This document shows positions 2,535-59,277 of a stretch of 59,277 nt of DNA, piece after piece. The position numbers were made by a program, and so were the translations under genes. The stretch comes from Thermoprotei archaeon. Lineage in GTDB: Archaea; Thermoproteota; Thermoprotei; Thermofilales; B20-G17. The stretch's first letter is position 1, and every line of letters begins with the position of its first letter. The notes below the pieces were generated by a model. That model saw only the letters and a list, made by a program, of their open reading frames with translations, was not told where the DNA came from and did not search any database. Location: assembly GCA_003650675.1 (NCBI GenBank), contig QMRH01000003.1, forward strand, positions 1 through 59,277, read 5' to 3'.

Positions 2535-3509
2535 TTAGTCGAGTGTCACATAGGAGTCTGCTGGAATGGCTTCGGGCACCACGAACGATATGGAGAGGGG
2601 AGCGCTTTTCTCAGGCCTGATCTCCACCAAAACATTGTCCCTAGGCTGGGCTCTCTGCGAGGCGTCAAGGATTATTATCAGGTACCCTTTTTCATAGAAG
2701 TCCAGTGAATCGTCGCCGTTATCGTTCTGGATCACCAGCACCGCACCTGTCCTCGTACCAACATAGTACTGGTAGCTGGCCGTTACGGTTGGCGTCGATT
2801 CAAAGGTTAAACCAAATGTTAACGTTACTGCGCCAGTCTCGTAGTCTATGGTTCCACTACTGCCAGTTTGGTTTCCAGTAAGTGTTCCGTTTCCGTTATC
2901 GGTAAAGATAACAGTTTTTTGGCTACCGCCTGAGGTTCCAGTAACAGTTATGGAGACTGTTCCGGGAACTATGGGGACGTGGGCTAATGTGCCGGATCCA
3001 CCGGTGGTGTCGAATGTTCCGCTTACGCTTTCGTCGGACACTGAAGGTGTCTGTAGCATCGTGGTCCACCATTTCATCAGGTGCCCTCCCTTGCCGGTGA
3101 GGTTGGAGATTATAGAGTCGAAGGTCATTAAGGTGGGGTTGATTGTATGGTTTATGCCTGCATATATGTTGGCTACAGCCACCCTCTTGCCGATCTTAAT
3201 GGAGACTGTTGTCTCGTTCTGCCACATTGGAACATACTTTACGCCCATCGTTTTGAGGGGGATTATTATGACCGAAACGTTGTTAGCATAGTTTTCATCG
3301 GTTTTAAGGAGTATGCTCCCATCTACTGTGAGGGGGCAGCTAGCCTCCTTGAGACCCTGCTGGATCGACTCCTGGCTCCTCTGTGTAGAGTAAAGCCCCA
3401 TGTTGACTACCATGAAGGCGAAGGCTGCGGCTATTACCACGAAAGCTATCATCACTATTGCGGCTTCTATACCCACTATAGCCTTCTTATTTAACCGGAG
3501 CCCTTTCAT
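2535..3509 (-). CDS. arlB: Archaellin with an inserted beta-rich domain
   Basis: 324 residues, about 100 more than its neighbour paralogue. The leader MKGLRLNKKAIVG would be cut before IEAAIVMIAFVVIAAAFAF, a textbook preflagellin site. Residues 1-150 and 250-324 align with the short archaellin. Residues about 156-250 (bases 2760-3044) are a Thr/Gly/Val-rich insert with motifs PIVPGTVSITV, DNGNGTLTG and GTIDYETGAVTLTF, which resemble repeats in phage-tail and other surface proteins. The ATG at 3509 has a GAGGTG ribosome site 5-10 bases upstream. It is the first gene of the operon, behind a TATA-like element and palindromes. Several Asn-X-Ser/Thr sequons suggest N-glycosylation. Confidence 0.87.
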   Translation of the reverse strand: MKGLRLNKKAIVGIEAAIVMIAFVVIAAAFAFMVVNMGLYSTQRSQESIQQGLKEASCPLTVDGSILLKTDENYANNVSVIIIPLKTMGVKYVPMWQNETTVSIKIGKRVAVANIYAGINHTINPTLMTFDSIISNLTGKGGHLMKWWTTMLQTPSVSDESVSGTFDTTGGSGTLAHVPIVPGTVSITVTGTSGGSQKTVIFTDNGNGTLTGNQTGSSGTIDYETGAVTLTFGLTFESTPTVTASYQYYVGTRTGAVLVIQNDNGDDSLDFYEKGYLIIILDASQRAQPRDNVLVEIRPEKSAPLSISFVVPEAIPADSYVTLD

Positions 3510-3540
3510 ATTTTCACCTCAACAATAACCTTGTCTCTTC

Positions 3541-3552
3541 CTTTTTAAAAAT
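3541..3552 (-). promoter_or_regulatory. TATA-like element of the archaellin operon
   Basis: On the minus strand the run TTTTTAAAAAG lies 32-43 bases before the archaellin ATG. This spacing would place transcription start near 3520, just before the GAGGTG ribosome site. The palindromic operators begin 12 bases further upstream, where they could affect TFB or TBP loading. Confidence 0.5.
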
Positions 3553-3563
3553 TTTATGAAAAA

Positions 3564-3605
3564 GTGTTCTGAACACTGTTTTGTACAACGTTCAGAACAA
3601 TGTTC
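3564..3605. promoter_or_regulatory. Tandem palindromic operators upstream of the archaellin promoter
   Basis: Two related palindromes sit directly upstream of the TATA element: GTGTTC-T-GAACAC (3564-3576) and GTTC-A-GAAC (3590-3598), with centres 24 bp apart. A third overlapping dyad, GAAC-AAT-GTTC, spans 3595-3605, and TTGTACAA lies between the two main sites. Repetition of the GTTC/GAAC half-site points to a dimeric winged-helix regulator. The obvious candidates are the two regulators encoded immediately upstream. In Sulfolobus, ArnR-type proteins act on paired boxes in the arlB promoter; equivalence here is inference. Confidence 0.62.
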
Positions 3606-3642
3606 TTCTATAAATTATATTTTTTAATTTAAAAACACAAAA

Positions 3643-3960
3643 TTAAGTGCTAACCTCCACACCGTATTTAGCTAATATCTTTAGGAAGGGTTTAACCTCC
3701 CTTAGAAAAGCCCTACCCTTCTCAGTTAGCTTTAAACCATGCTCATTCCATTTAATTAACTCAAGGTATGATAATTCAAGCAACCTGTCTTTCAACCTTC
3801 TAGCAGAAAGATTCGCCCGGTACATGACCCTCGTGAATTTAGCAAAGCCATTGTCGCTTCTCCTACATTCTTCAAGTATGGCTTTCAGAATATCTATATA
3901 TACCGAAAGCCGGTCTCTGCGTCTCAGGAATTTCAGGTTCCTTTCTTGATCCAGCTTCAT
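3643..3960 (-). CDS. Small winged-helix transcriptional regulator
   Basis: 105 residues. The helix-turn-helix spans about residues 45-75 (YRANLSARRLKDRLLELSYL), followed by a wing and LTEKGRAFLREVKPFL, the pattern of archaeal HTH_45/PadR-like single-domain regulators. There is no membrane or ligand domain. It lies between the ArnR-like gene and the archaellin operon, all on the minus strand, and its stop is about 40 bases from the operator cluster. Control of archaellum genes or of itself is inferred from position only. Confidence 0.65.
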   Translation of the reverse strand: MKLDQERNLKFLRRRDRLSVYIDILKAILEECRRSDNGFAKFTRVMYRANLSARRLKDRLLELSYLELIKWNEHGLKLTEKGRAFLREVKPFLKILAKYGVEVST

Positions 3961-10507: not shown

Positions 10508-11458
10508 ATGGATAGGATTCGTATAGGGATTATAGGCGTCAAGGGGATAGGATCCGTCTACATGAACGTTGTTAGAGCTATAAGCGATGCAAGGCTCGTA
10601 GCTGTAACCGGGCCACAGGACGCGTATCCTCGTGTATCCGAGCGAGATGTAAGGTTCTTTGACGACGCCTTAGAAATGCTGGAGGAAACGCGGTTGGATG
10701 CCGTTATAATTACATGGCAACACGGCGAAGAGCTTGTAAAAGAGGCTTTAAAAAGGAAGATACCGGTTTTAAAGGAGCCGCCTTTAGCATACCCTGTGGA
10801 GGTTGCTGAAAACCTTGTAGAGGTTGCCAGGGAAAATAAGGTAACGTTGATGGTTAGCACACCTAGAAGATATACAACCATGTTTCAACATGCCAAGAGA
10901 ATAATCGATGAAAACGTTGTAGGCGGGGTTCTAATGGCGAGAGGATGCGGTATAGTGGATTCAACACGGTTTAGGGTTGAGGGGGATTTCGATCCTCTAG
11001 TCAGCACAGTCTACGGCATGCTGGATCTATACTTATGGTTTTTCGGTAAACCACTGAAGATATATTCTAGTTGCATAGGTGAACAAGGTCTACTGTCAGG
11101 ATGCAAGAAGGGTCTATTTAACCTGCATTTCCAAAACGATGTTATAGGCTCCCTTGTTTTCGGATACTCCGCCGGAATGCAGGAGGAGAACATTGTTGTC
11201 TACTTCGAGAAGGGAACGATGCTAGCCTCCTGGAATGAACTCCATGTCCAAAATTCCGCTGGATCTATAATCACCAGGGAACTGAAAATCGGCAGGTACT
11301 TTCAAGACGCCCTACGGTTGCAAGTTGAAAGGTTTATCAGGATCGTTCAAACTAGAAATAGAGGTGAACGGGATTTAAAGGAGGCTTTAAACATGGTTAA
11401 AATACTGGATCTAGCTTTAAAGTCTTGTAGAGAGGGAAGGGAAGTTGCCATCCCATAA
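10508..11458 (+). CDS. Gfo/Idh/MocA-family NAD(P)-dependent oxidoreductase
   Basis: About 316 residues from ATG 10508. The N-terminal Rossmann motif GIIGVKGIGSVY is near residues 6-17. The family's EKP motif appears as KEPPLAYP, keeping the Lys-Glu-Pro order shifted. The second half is the alpha/beta substrate domain. These enzymes oxidise sugar or cyclitol hydroxyls; the substrate is not clear here. The 3' end overlaps the surE start by 14 bp, so the two are coupled. Confidence 0.8.
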   Translation: MDRIRIGIIGVKGIGSVYMNVVRAISDARLVAVTGPQDAYPRVSERDVRFFDDALEMLEETRLDAVIITWQHGEELVKEALKRKIPVLKEPPLAYPVEVAENLVEVARENKVTLMVSTPRRYTTMFQHAKRIIDENVVGGVLMARGCGIVDSTRFRVEGDFDPLVSTVYGMLDLYLWFFGKPLKIYSSCIGEQGLLSGCKKGLFNLHFQNDVIGSLVFGYSAGMQEENIVVYFEKGTMLASWNELHVQNSAGSIITRELKIGRYFQDALRLQVERFIRIVQTRNRGERDLKEALNMVKILDLALKSCREGREVAIP

Positions 11459-12242
11459 AAGGTTTAAAATACTCATCACCAACGATGATGGCCCATTCAG
11501 CCCCGGGTTGAAGCTACTTTACGATGCAGTTAAAGACCTTGGCGAATGTTTTGTGGTCGTACCTGAAACACCTAAATCAGCCAGCGGGTTGGGCATAACC
11601 TTACATAAGCCGTTAAGGATAAAGAGGCTGGTAGTACAGGACGTACCGATGTACCTTGTGAACGGCGCGCCGAGCGACATAATCTACGTTGCAGAAAACT
11701 CCGTGTGCGGTAGACCCAACCTAGTTCTCTCTGGAGTTAACATAGGAGATAATACGAGCGTCCAGGTTGTGCTCTCCTCCGGCACCGTTGGAGCAGCCCT
11801 CCAAGCCGCACTAGAAAACATCCCTGGAATCTCGTTCAGCGTGGCTGCGGACTCCCCGGAAAAACTGGAGGAAAAAGAGCTATGGCAAAGCATATGGAAA
11901 GCCATTAGAATGTTGGTTAAACACGTGGTTGAAGAAGGGTTCCCGGAGGGTGTAGACGTACTTAACGTAAATTTTCCTTCAAAGCCCGCCAAGACCTTCA
12001 AATACGCCCCTCTAGCTAGACTGAGATTCAGCAATCTAGTTGTAAAGCGTAGAGACCCCCGTGGAGTCGACTACTACTGGCTATATGGAGAACCCGTCCA
12101 GCCGGAGCCGGGCACCGATGTCTACACCGTTTTAGTGGAGGAAAAGATCTCCGTAACCCCCATATCTATAAGGGGTCTAACCGGACCCAGTGAACCGGTT
12201 TTAAAGTTGCTTAAAAGACTATCTGTTTATTTGAGTATTTAG
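11445..12242 (+). CDS. surE: SurE 5'/3'-nucleotidase
   Basis: 265 residues from TTG 11445. The metal-binding ILITNDDGPFSPG is near residues 9-21, followed by SASGLGITLHKPLR, NGAPSD and LSGVNIGDN, all SurE signatures. SurE removes phosphate from nucleoside monophosphates and short polyphosphates in the cytoplasm. Full family length. It overlaps the oxidoreductase gene upstream, which is unusual company for surE and suggests only shared transcription. Its stop is about 60 bases before the RNA-A transcript. Confidence 0.93.
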   Translation: MPSHKRFKILITNDDGPFSPGLKLLYDAVKDLGECFVVVPETPKSASGLGITLHKPLRIKRLVVQDVPMYLVNGAPSDIIYVAENSVCGRPNLVLSGVNIGDNTSVQVVLSSGTVGAALQAALENIPGISFSVAADSPEKLEEKELWQSIWKAIRMLVKHVVEEGFPEGVDVLNVNFPSKPAKTFKYAPLARLRFSNLVVKRRDPRGVDYYWLYGEPVQPEPGTDVYTVLVEEKISVTPISIRGLTGPSEPVLKLLKRLSVYLSI

Positions 12243-12271
12243 GGTATTTTGGAAATTATGGAAACTCAAAG

Positions 12272-12282
12272 CTTATATATGG
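12272..12282 (+). promoter_or_regulatory. TATA box of RNA-A
   Basis: CTTATATATGG lies 25-30 bases before the 5' end of the conserved RNA segment, with an A-rich BRE-like stretch (GAAACTCAAA) directly upstream. It lies downstream of the surE stop, so RNA-A has its own promoter. Confidence 0.6.
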
Positions 12283-12300
12283 CGTTTTATCTACTCACCT

Positions 12301-12475
12301 CAGATGCCATCAGGCTTAGCCGATGACGGCACTCCCCGTAACCCGCACCCTGTGGTGTGCGAGAATGTAGCTCCCGATGAACCACCGATAGAGATGAGGT
12401 GACTGAGGGAGAAGCCCGTGCAAGTTCCCATAATATCAAAAATATCCAAAACATCATGCACGGGCAACCACTAAG
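12301..12475 (+). ncRNA. RNA-A: structured small RNA, apparent paralogue of RNA-B
   Basis: About 175 nt with no reading frame, placed about 25 bases after a TATA box. Helices that can be drawn: GCCG/CGGC around ATGA (12319-12330); an imperfect hairpin at 12344-12361; CTCCC (12371-12375) with GGGAG (12407-12411); and a perfect 9-bp pairing of GCCCGTGCA (12414-12422) with TGCACGGGC (12457-12465) around a 34-nt A/T-rich loop. The CTCCC/GGGAG stem encloses GATGA and CTGA, as in a box C/D kink-turn. It shares the 5' motif AGCCGATGA, a GGGA(T)GAA(G)CCC motif and the exact 17-mer at 12455-12471 with RNA-B. It does not look like RNase P, SRP RNA, 5S rRNA or tRNA. Confidence 0.6.
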
Positions 12476-12487
12476 AGAAACAGGTTT

Positions 12488-13636
12488 CTAAGAAAGTTTT
12501 TTCTCGATGAACTCTAGGAGCCTATTGAATGCCAGGATCCTTGATGTACTGGGGCTACTGATCGGTCCGGGCCTTTTCATGTAGAAGGCGTTTACCTCGT
12601 AGATTGTTCCCTTAAAACCGTTTTCTAAAGCTAGTTTGGCTAAGCGGACTAGGTCGACTATATAACCCGCCAAAGCTGGACTATCGTTAACCCTCATATT
12701 GATAAATATCTCGTCTACAGCCCCGTTAAAAGACACATATTCAATGTGCATGGCAACGAACTTTTTGTCCCCCAATGGTTTAAGGTAGCCTGTAGGCTTG
12801 ATGTAGTGTGGGGCTTCGTATTCCAAGATATCTTTAACGATGCTGGATTTCGTTGCCTCCTTCGCTCTATTCCTTTCCTCGTTTAACAAGGCAAGGAAGT
12901 CCATGTTACCTCCTATGTTGAACTGTGTGATGGATCTAACAAACCTGTTTCTCTCCTTTAAATGCTCCAGCAGGTCGGCTGTTAACGGTGTTGCGCCAGT
13001 GGCTCCATCATCTCCTAAAATCAGGCTACTGGACTCTTCGGCCATCTTAACATATCCGGGGCTGTTGGCTAATAACACAGGTATGAGATTTACGTAAGCT
13101 ATTTTCCTTCCCCTTTCCGCGTACTTGAATGCTAGATATGCGTATACCTGGCTCGGCACCAAGCCTACTCCTCCCTTCTCGATCTTCTCTTCAACCTGTC
13201 TTATGTCAGTCACTAGGGAAGATTTCTGGGTGGTGCAAACATCCACGATGACATCTGGTTTAAGCTTCTCGTACAGGCTGTAAAATTCGTCGAGAGCCTC
13301 TTTAAACTCAAGTTCTCTATCTAACGAACTCACCGGAATGTTAAGGTCTTTTAGGGACCGCATTTCAACACCTTTATATACTTTAACTTTCCTCAGGGAT
13401 TCCGGGACATTGCCAAATCCATAGAATTCGGTAGCAACCTGGTAGACGTCTTTACCCGTTTTTCTTGAATCCACCTCAACTGAACCAACCAACTCAATGT
13501 CCTTAAAGCCATATTTCAAAGGCATATCTGCTAAGGGTACTCCATAGGGCTTTAACTCCCCTCTCTTTATCCTCTCCAACCCCACTGCGAAAATCGTTCC
13601 AACAACTCCCTGACCCAACATCAAAACCCTTATCAT
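12488..13636 (-). CDS. ino1: myo-inositol-1-phosphate synthase
   Basis: About 382 residues from ATG 13636. Converts glucose 6-phosphate to inositol 3-phosphate with NAD; in archaea the product feeds archaetidylinositol lipids and, in hyperthermophiles, di-inositol phosphate solutes. The NAD-binding LMLGQGVVGTIFAVG is at the N-terminus. Family motifs LIPVLLANSPGYV, GDDGATGATPLTADLL and QFNIGGNMDF are present. Two palindromes between this gene and the divergent padR gene suggest PadR control. Confidence 0.92.
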   Translation of the reverse strand: MIRVLMLGQGVVGTIFAVGLERIKRGELKPYGVPLADMPLKYGFKDIELVGSVEVDSRKTGKDVYQVATEFYGFGNVPESLRKVKVYKGVEMRSLKDLNIPVSSLDRELEFKEALDEFYSLYEKLKPDVIVDVCTTQKSSLVTDIRQVEEKIEKGGVGLVPSQVYAYLAFKYAERGRKIAYVNLIPVLLANSPGYVKMAEESSSLILGDDGATGATPLTADLLEHLKERNRFVRSITQFNIGGNMDFLALLNEERNRAKEATKSSIVKDILEYEAPHYIKPTGYLKPLGDKKFVAMHIEYVSFNGAVDEIFINMRVNDSPALAGYIVDLVRLAKLALENGFKGTIYEVNAFYMKRPGPISSPSTSRILAFNRLLEFIEKKLS

Positions 13637-58994: not shown

Positions 58995-59195
58995 TCCGGT
59001 TTGGTGGTTGCCCGTGCATGGTTGCCAAAGTGACGAGAATATCCGAAATACTATGCATGGGTTCATCCCGCCTTTTGGGCGCCCCTTTGACCTACCTACG
59101 GGGGCGCCTACACACTTATTCGGCACCCCCTCGGCGAATCTAGGGTTTGCCTCATCCCCCGGCCTACGGCTCATCAGCTCATCGGCTTACCGAAA
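58995..59195 (-). ncRNA. RNA-B: structured small RNA, apparent paralogue of RNA-A
   Basis: About 200 nt on the minus strand, no convincing reading frame. The 5' motif AAGCCGATGA lies at 59179-59188, close behind the predicted start. A perfect 9-bp helix pairs GGGGGTGCC with GGCGCCCCC (59100-59108 with 59122-59130). GGGATGAACCCATGCA (about 59055-59070) matches RNA-A's GGGAGAAGCCCGTGCA. The 17-mer CATGCACGGGCAACCAC at 59004-59020 is identical to RNA-A. The 35-nt loop between these motifs is unrelated to RNA-A's 34-nt loop. It lies upstream of asnS but that gene has its own TATA box. Confidence 0.6.
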
Positions 59196-59212
59196 TACAT
59201 GTACCTAGATAT

Positions 59213-59224
59213 CCAGATATAAAT
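59213..59224 (-). promoter_or_regulatory. TATA box of RNA-B
   Basis: ATTTATATCTGG on the minus strand, about 25 bases from the 5' edge of the conserved RNA-B segment. Same arrangement as for RNA-A; it sets the strand of RNA-B. Confidence 0.55.
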
Positions 59225-59277
59225 TTCATGGCGAAAAACTATAGGTAAAATACTTGCAAATCACCATAATCACGAAA

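What the first reader, a model, noticed from the sequence alone, without database searches (positions are those of the whole stretch)
12301..12475. RNA-A: a TATA-driven small RNA whose ends are repeated 46 kb away in RNA-B
Two non-coding loci in opposite orientations, each about 25 bases after a TATA box, share in order AGCCGATGA, GGGA(T)GAA(G)CCC(G/A)TGCA, then an exact 17-mer. The last two motifs pair perfectly in RNA-A (9 bp). Between them lies a variable 34-nt (A) or 35-nt (B) segment that is unrelated between copies. A constant scaffold holding a variable loop of fixed size looks like a guide-RNA design, and may be an undescribed archaeal RNA family. The CTCCC/GGGAG stem around GATGA...CTGA may be a kink-turn for L7Ae. 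An IS605 omega-RNA relic is an alternative.
Basis: partly seen in the sequence, partly recalled or inferred. Interest (0 to 1): 0.85.

Follow-up and report, generated by a model that had tools for sequence, protein, structure and literature searches.

The report
Mini-transposons carrying TnpB guide RNAs
The small RNA is the guide-RNA scaffold of a gene-less miniature IS607 transposon, present in about twenty copies in this archaeal genome, each with its own promoter and a different neighbouring sequence as its likely guide; the second locus (RNA-B) is the same kind of transposon carrying the guide-like RNA of a different, unusual TnpB protein.

Summary
RNA-A lies in a 254-bp gene-less element (12218-12471), one of 17 BLAST matches and 21 covariance-model places in this genome. 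Its ends match the single autonomous IS607 copy (serine recombinase plus 444-aa TnpB, contig C27); its RNA stretch matches the end of that tnpB, where TnpB guide RNA (omega/reRNA) lies. In the mini-element a TATA-like box sits 28-34 nt before the scaffold in 21 of 23 minis. The '34-nt variable loop' is conserved among A copies and mirrors the left end, so it is not a guide. The guide should be the host flank after ...GGGCAACC-AC. The kink-turn is not conserved.

RNA-B sits between the same IS607 ends but carries another scaffold. Relatives of it occur divergent from a compact (~360 aa) TnpB-like gene, mostly without zinc ribbon and behind a small DNA-binding-type ORF. I found no description of this layout in the open-access papers searched.

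The IS607 TnpB has Gln at the third RuvC site, so cutting is uncertain. No expression data exist.

The parts
12218..12471 (+). complete mini-IS607 element A (AC dinucleotide at each end)
   Evidence: ends fixed by 28 distinct elements; LE and RE shared with the autonomous copy on C27
12218..12271 (+). left end (LE) of element A
   Evidence: same LE in front of tnpA of the autonomous IS607; 12232-12266 is the inverse of the RE loop
12272..12279 (+). TATA-like box CTTATATA
   Evidence: 28-34 nt before the scaffold in 21 of 23 minis
12306..12471 (+). RNA-A scaffold (omega/reRNA type)
   Evidence: homologous to the tnpB 3' end and RE of C27; covariation; model R1
12306..12311 (+). closing helix, 5' side (partner 12398-12403)
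   Evidence: 4 of 6 pairs with compensatory change
12342..12363 (+). hairpin P1 (12342-12348 with 12357-12363)
   Evidence: 6 of 7 pairs with compensatory change
12352..12385 (+). pseudoknot: P1 loop 12352-12356 with 12381-12385
   Evidence: 94% paired but little varying
12414..12465 (+). right-end 9-bp stem and its 34-nt loop (loop 12423-12456)
   Evidence: no compensatory pair in type A; loop mirrors the LE
12472..12491 (+). putative guide: host flank, 3' end of surE
   Evidence: right flank differs in every distinct element; use as guide is inferred
11445..12242 (+). surE ORF, whose 3' end carries the insertion
   Evidence: stop codon lies inside the LE
59004..59277 (-). mini-IS607 element B (LE cut by the contig end)
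   Evidence: complete LE seen in L045 (C47) and in contigs C59 and C84
59004..59191 (-). RNA-B scaffold, ending in the same RE
   Evidence: related to RNAs divergent from compact TnpB-like genes
59100..59130 (-). RNA-B hairpin GGGGGTGCC...GGCGCCCCC
   Evidence: same stem, different sequence in L045; covaries over 9 members
59216..59223 (-). TATA-like box of RNA-B (TTTATATC)
   Evidence: position

Best explanation
RNA-A is the guide-RNA (omega/reRNA) gene of a non-autonomous mini-IS607 transposon. Shown: it has the left and right ends of an IS607 element, AC at both ends, a covarying scaffold that in the autonomous copy forms the end of tnpB and the right end, and a TATA-like box just upstream of that scaffold. 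Inferred: the box starts a transcript near 12303 that runs through the scaffold into host DNA; the RNA is loaded in trans by TnpB from the single autonomous copy (C27), whose TnpA moves the mini-elements; the first ~16-20 nt of host flank serve as guide, so each copy marks its own empty insertion site next to an RG-AC motif and favours retention of the element. RNA-B is an IS607-ended element carrying the scaffold of a second TnpB family, in which the RNA gene is divergent from the protein gene.
For: 17 BLAST matches and 21 CM places in the own genome. Partner on C27: IS607 TnpA (NF033518, 3.5e-59) and guided TnpB (NF040570, 5.3e-30); predicted fold matches Cas12f/TnpB, with ISFba1 IS607 TnpB and ISDra2 TnpB among the hits. 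RNA-A homology spans the tnpB 3' end and stops at the same RE; same LE. 28 elements: GAC at the left junction in 26, a purine before it in 27, AC at the RE, variable right flank. IS607 crossover between matching dinucleotides, with the right-flank nucleotide part of the scaffold, is published for ISXfa1 (PMC10711439). Covariation exceeds all controls: 73 double-changed cells against 32 in shuffles and 8-21 when slid; also in the 23 minis alone. Box-to-scaffold spacing kept across genera. Found in 11 of 81 class genomes and in named Desulfurococcales, Thermoprotei, Archaeoglobaceae and Njordarchaeota MAGs.
Against: No transcription or protein-binding data. Some own copies have a broken P1 (L006, L027, L029, L036) or a broken right-end stem, so not every copy needs a working RNA. 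TnpB has D203-E294-Q378, the usual third Asp being Gln in all members of this clade. Part of the covariation may have arisen in full-length elements. Helices were chosen on the alignment they were counted on. The TATA score itself is weak evidence (36% of shuffles reach the lower cut).
Confidence: 0.68

Rival explanations
1. Inert passenger: an ordinary mini-IS607 spread by TnpA alone. The RNA scaffold persists because it overlaps the right end needed by the recombinase and is not used as a guide.
For: Broken helices in several own copies; the RE is the most conserved part and would also be needed as DNA; the RE loop mirrors the LE, as a recombinase site would.
Against: Compensatory changes in P1 and the closing helix among minis alone; TATA-like box at a fixed distance from the scaffold; conserved internal sequence far from the ends.
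Confidence: 0.22
2. RNA-guided binder, not cutter: the RNA is loaded by TnpB, but the D-E-Q protein binds targets without cutting and silences or blocks them, as Cas12m does.
For: Gln at the third RuvC site in every member of the clade with an otherwise intact ORF; precedent in Cas12m with an altered RuvC site (PMC10442227).
Against: The element still carries a full IS607 TnpA and moves, unlike exapted dead TnpBs; a third-site substitution need not abolish cutting, since wider relatives carry His there. This rival overlaps with the main model except for the cutting step.
Confidence: 0.3
3. A host regulatory or box C/D-like RNA unrelated to transposition, as the reader first proposed.
For: TATA-like box, GATGA/CTGA boxes in some copies.
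Against: Transposon ends, dispersed copies with unrelated flanks, homology to the tnpB 3' end; boxes not conserved; best Rfam score is far below its cut-off.
Confidence: 0.02

Closest known systems
IS607-family TnpB reRNA (ISXfa1, PMC10711439; ISFba1 with RAGATH-18, PMC11061315)
   Same: IS607 TnpA with TnpB; scaffold at the right end; guide in the host flank; matching dinucleotide ends; G-containing motif on the left
   Different: archaeal; scaffold overlaps the end of tnpB (ISFba1's does not); no RAGATH-18 hit; D-E-Q TnpB; most copies lack both genes and have a TATA-like box just before the RNA
PATEs and other mini-elements of the IS200/IS605 family
   Same: gene-less elements with the ends of a TnpB-bearing family
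   Different: IS607 ends and serine recombinase instead of IS605 ends and Y1 transposase; the RNA scaffold is kept and has a promoter-like box
Cas12m (type V-M, PMC10442227) and dead TnpBs such as TldR
   Same: TnpB-fold protein with an altered RuvC site
   Different: here the gene lies in an intact IS607 element; function untested

Membership tests
IS607 family (non-autonomous member) | autonomous partner with serine-recombinase TnpA | tested here: met
   NF033518 3.5e-59, above cut-off
IS607 family (non-autonomous member) | same LE and RE as the autonomous copy | tested here: met
IS607 family (non-autonomous member) | matching dinucleotide at the two ends | tested here: met
   AC at both ends in nearly all of 28 elements
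IS607 family (non-autonomous member) | mobilised by TnpA | not testable with these tools
   needs an excision assay
TnpB omega/reRNA | scaffold at the 3' end of tnpB reaching the RE | tested here: met
TnpB omega/reRNA | conserved structure with covariation | tested here: met
TnpB omega/reRNA | guide taken from the flank, next to a TAM at the left junction | tested here: inconclusive
   variable right flank and RG-AC on the left; no transcript or cleavage data
TnpB omega/reRNA | bound by TnpB | not testable with these tools
   needs pull-down
TnpB RNA-guided nuclease (partner protein) | RuvC D-E-D triad | tested here: not met
   D203-E294-Q378, Gln invariant in the clade
IS200/IS605 | Y1 transposase partner | tested here: not met
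   Y1 hits only on C22 and C98, not with this element
RAGATH-18 reRNA | Rfam match | tested here: not met
Box C/D kink-turn RNA | conserved C and D boxes | tested here: not met
   CTGA lost in 8 of 30

The most novel reading that the evidence does not exclude
IS607 mini-elements in these archaea are vehicles for trans-acting guide RNAs of two different TnpB families. The second family (RNA-B type) would be a distinct RNA-guided system: a compact TnpB-like protein, mostly without zinc ribbon and with a D-E-H site, co-encoded with a small DNA-binding-type protein, and a guide RNA gene divergent from it, outside the known layout in which the RNA lies at or behind the 3' end of tnpB.
Probability: 0.4. 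Interest if true: 0.82.

Novelty: new variant of a known kind. Interest (0 to 1): 0.63.

Why it matters
TnpB guide RNAs are usually seen as cis products of the tnpB locus. Here gene-less elements seem able to express the RNA alone, from the transposon's own left-end promoter, so one TnpB could guard some twenty insertion sites. That makes the question of whether TnpB maintains non-autonomous copies in trans directly testable. The D-E-Q site asks whether cutting is even needed. RNA-B points to a TnpB-like group with a divergent guide-like RNA that I could not find described.

Tried and rejected
Rfam at gathering and relaxed thresholds: nothing for RNA-A. RNAalifold alone gave partial structures, so helices were named by hand and counted on the same alignment, which favours them. 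Variable-loop guide: rejected. Kink-turn: rejected. IS605 origin: rejected, no Y1 partner with the element and no OrfB_IS605 hit. Viral collection: one match (L063) that does not align with the family outside the ends, taken as chance. One origin of all minis: the full alignment puts minis on one side of a branch (97/98), but without the mini-specific 5' columns minis and full copies interleave, so a single origin is not claimed. LE/RE inverted repeat: clear in A, borderline in the autonomous copy, absent in B. surE C-termini of relatives are too variable to prove the empty site. RNA-A guide elsewhere in the own genome: only hits at 3 mismatches, no more than the control.

Full report
1. The observation. 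A search of the window's own genome with 12301-12475 gave 17 matches, itself included, at 77-100% identity, so this is a dispersed repeat family. Rfam has no such family.

2. The unit is a transposon. Aligned copies agree from (G)ACTATTTG... to ...GCACGGGCAACCAC and differ outside. One copy of the RNA (C27) overlaps the 3' end of a 444-aa tnpB, with an IS607 serine recombinase gene just upstream; NCBIfam names them guided_TnpB and transpos_IS607 above cut-off. The LE in front of that tnpA is the LE of the mini-elements. Over 28 distinct elements from several genomes, the left junction reads GAC in 26, the base before it is a purine in 27, AC ends the RE, and the right flank is free. Published IS607 transposition uses matching dinucleotides, and in ISXfa1 the fixed right-flank nucleotide belongs to the scaffold (PMC10711439), so AC is the likely core and RG-AC the likely target/TAM motif (inference). 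In the window the element sits in the 3' end of surE; the ORF now stops inside the LE, and reading across the empty joint would give a 264-aa protein.

3. The RNA. On 30 members (23 minis; 7 linked to tnpB or remnants of it) a closing helix and hairpin P1 carry many compensatory changes; a P1-loop pseudoknot and the CTCCC/GGGAG stem are well paired but vary little. Total covariation exceeds shuffled and slid controls and persists in minis alone. The right-end stem has no compensatory change in type A and is broken in one own sub-clade. In minis the scaffold follows the LE directly, behind a TATA-like 8-mer 28-34 nt upstream in 21 of 23. The score of that 8-mer is not striking in itself; its constant position is the argument.

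4. The loop. 12423-12456 is conserved among A copies, partly deleted in some, and is the inverse of LE 12232-12266. It looks like a recombinase site or a structural part of the DNA ends, not a guide. The copy-specific sequence is the host flank from 12472 on.

5. Not all copies look competent. L006, L027 and L029 join the left arm of one P1 type to the right arm of the other, as recombination between copies would give, and the P1 of L036 is also broken; nine members have the changed left arm of the right-end stem. So minis with a damaged RNA exist, and the passenger rival stays open. Trees show minis as one side of a branch when the mini-specific 5' part is included and interleaved with full copies when it is not, again pointing to exchange.

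6. The partner protein. TnpB has invariant D203 and E294, zinc-ribbon cysteines, and Gln378 where TnpB/Cas12f have Asp. Gln is shared by the whole clade; more distant archaeal relatives have His or Asp. The predicted fold matches Cas12f and TnpB structures. Cas12m shows that an altered RuvC site can leave binding without cutting (PMC10442227). Whether this TnpB cuts cannot be told here.

7. Spread. The model finds the RNA in 11 of 81 genomes of the class; exact pattern matches lie in MAGs named Desulfurococcales, Thermoprotei, Staphylothermus, Archaeoglobaceae, Njordarchaeota and Woesearchaeota (the last may be mis-binned).

8. RNA-B. Copies on C3 (window), C11, C47 and, in part, C59 and C84 belong to IS607-ended elements (the LE is seen on C47, C59 and C84) but carry another scaffold. 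A relative in G386 (L152, 76% over 135 nt) lies beside, and divergent from, a 359-aa TnpB-like gene (TIGR01766 1.9e-8). Homologues of that gene in G025, G030, G036, G045, G049 and G059 have an RNA of similar layout in the same divergent position, behind a TATA-like box; the own genome has a similar case on C38. Nine aligned RNAs covary, including the terminal hairpin before ...GGGC(A/G)A. Two G049 copies are 98% identical over 1.4 kb with different flanks, so the cassette has been copied to new sites. A short ORF, about 48 aa, overlaps the start of the gene in most: MazE/AbrB-like by Pfam in two, RHH-like in L152 (below cut-off), unassigned in others. I read RNA-B as the guide RNA of this second family carried by IS607 ends; guide function is inferred from layout only. 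Searches of the open-access library found no description of a divergent TnpB guide RNA; subscription papers were not searched.

9. Verdict. Identity as a mini-IS607 element with a TnpB RNA scaffold is close to certain; that the RNA is made and used in trans is likely but unproved; cutting is uncertain. New variant of a known kind, with RNA-B the more novel lead.

Noticed in passing
L152, L172-L179, L186, L187; own genome L181 (C38) and L182 (C17): Compact TnpB-like genes (~360 aa, D-E-H site, nearly all without zinc-ribbon cysteines) with a structured RNA divergent from them and, in most, a short MazE/AbrB- or RHH-like ORF overlapping the gene start.
   Followed up: partly
L033:2292-3626 (-) and relatives L049, L051, L055, L056, L060, L061, L123, L124: IS607 TnpB clade with Gln in place of the third RuvC Asp; more distant relatives carry His or Asp.
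   Followed up: partly
L006 and L007: Two own minis share about 55 extra nt left of the LE but differ beyond it and in the right flank, as if a longer unit had moved.
   Followed up: partly
window end 59277; starts of contigs C48, C59, C84; end of C70: Contig ends lie inside copies of these elements, so copy number is probably underestimated.
   Followed up: partly
L052 (contig labelled Woesearchaeota): Carries a mini-element nearly identical to own copy L002; transfer between phyla or mis-binning.
   Followed up: no
L034 (C98) 2926-3833: A separate IS605-type remnant: Y1 transposase fragment followed by a broken tnpB.
   Followed up: no
L054 and L109 (G030): A different TnpB group keeping the third-site Asp; the L054 element ends in the same RE sequence, so different TnpBs appear to share these ends.
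   Followed up: no
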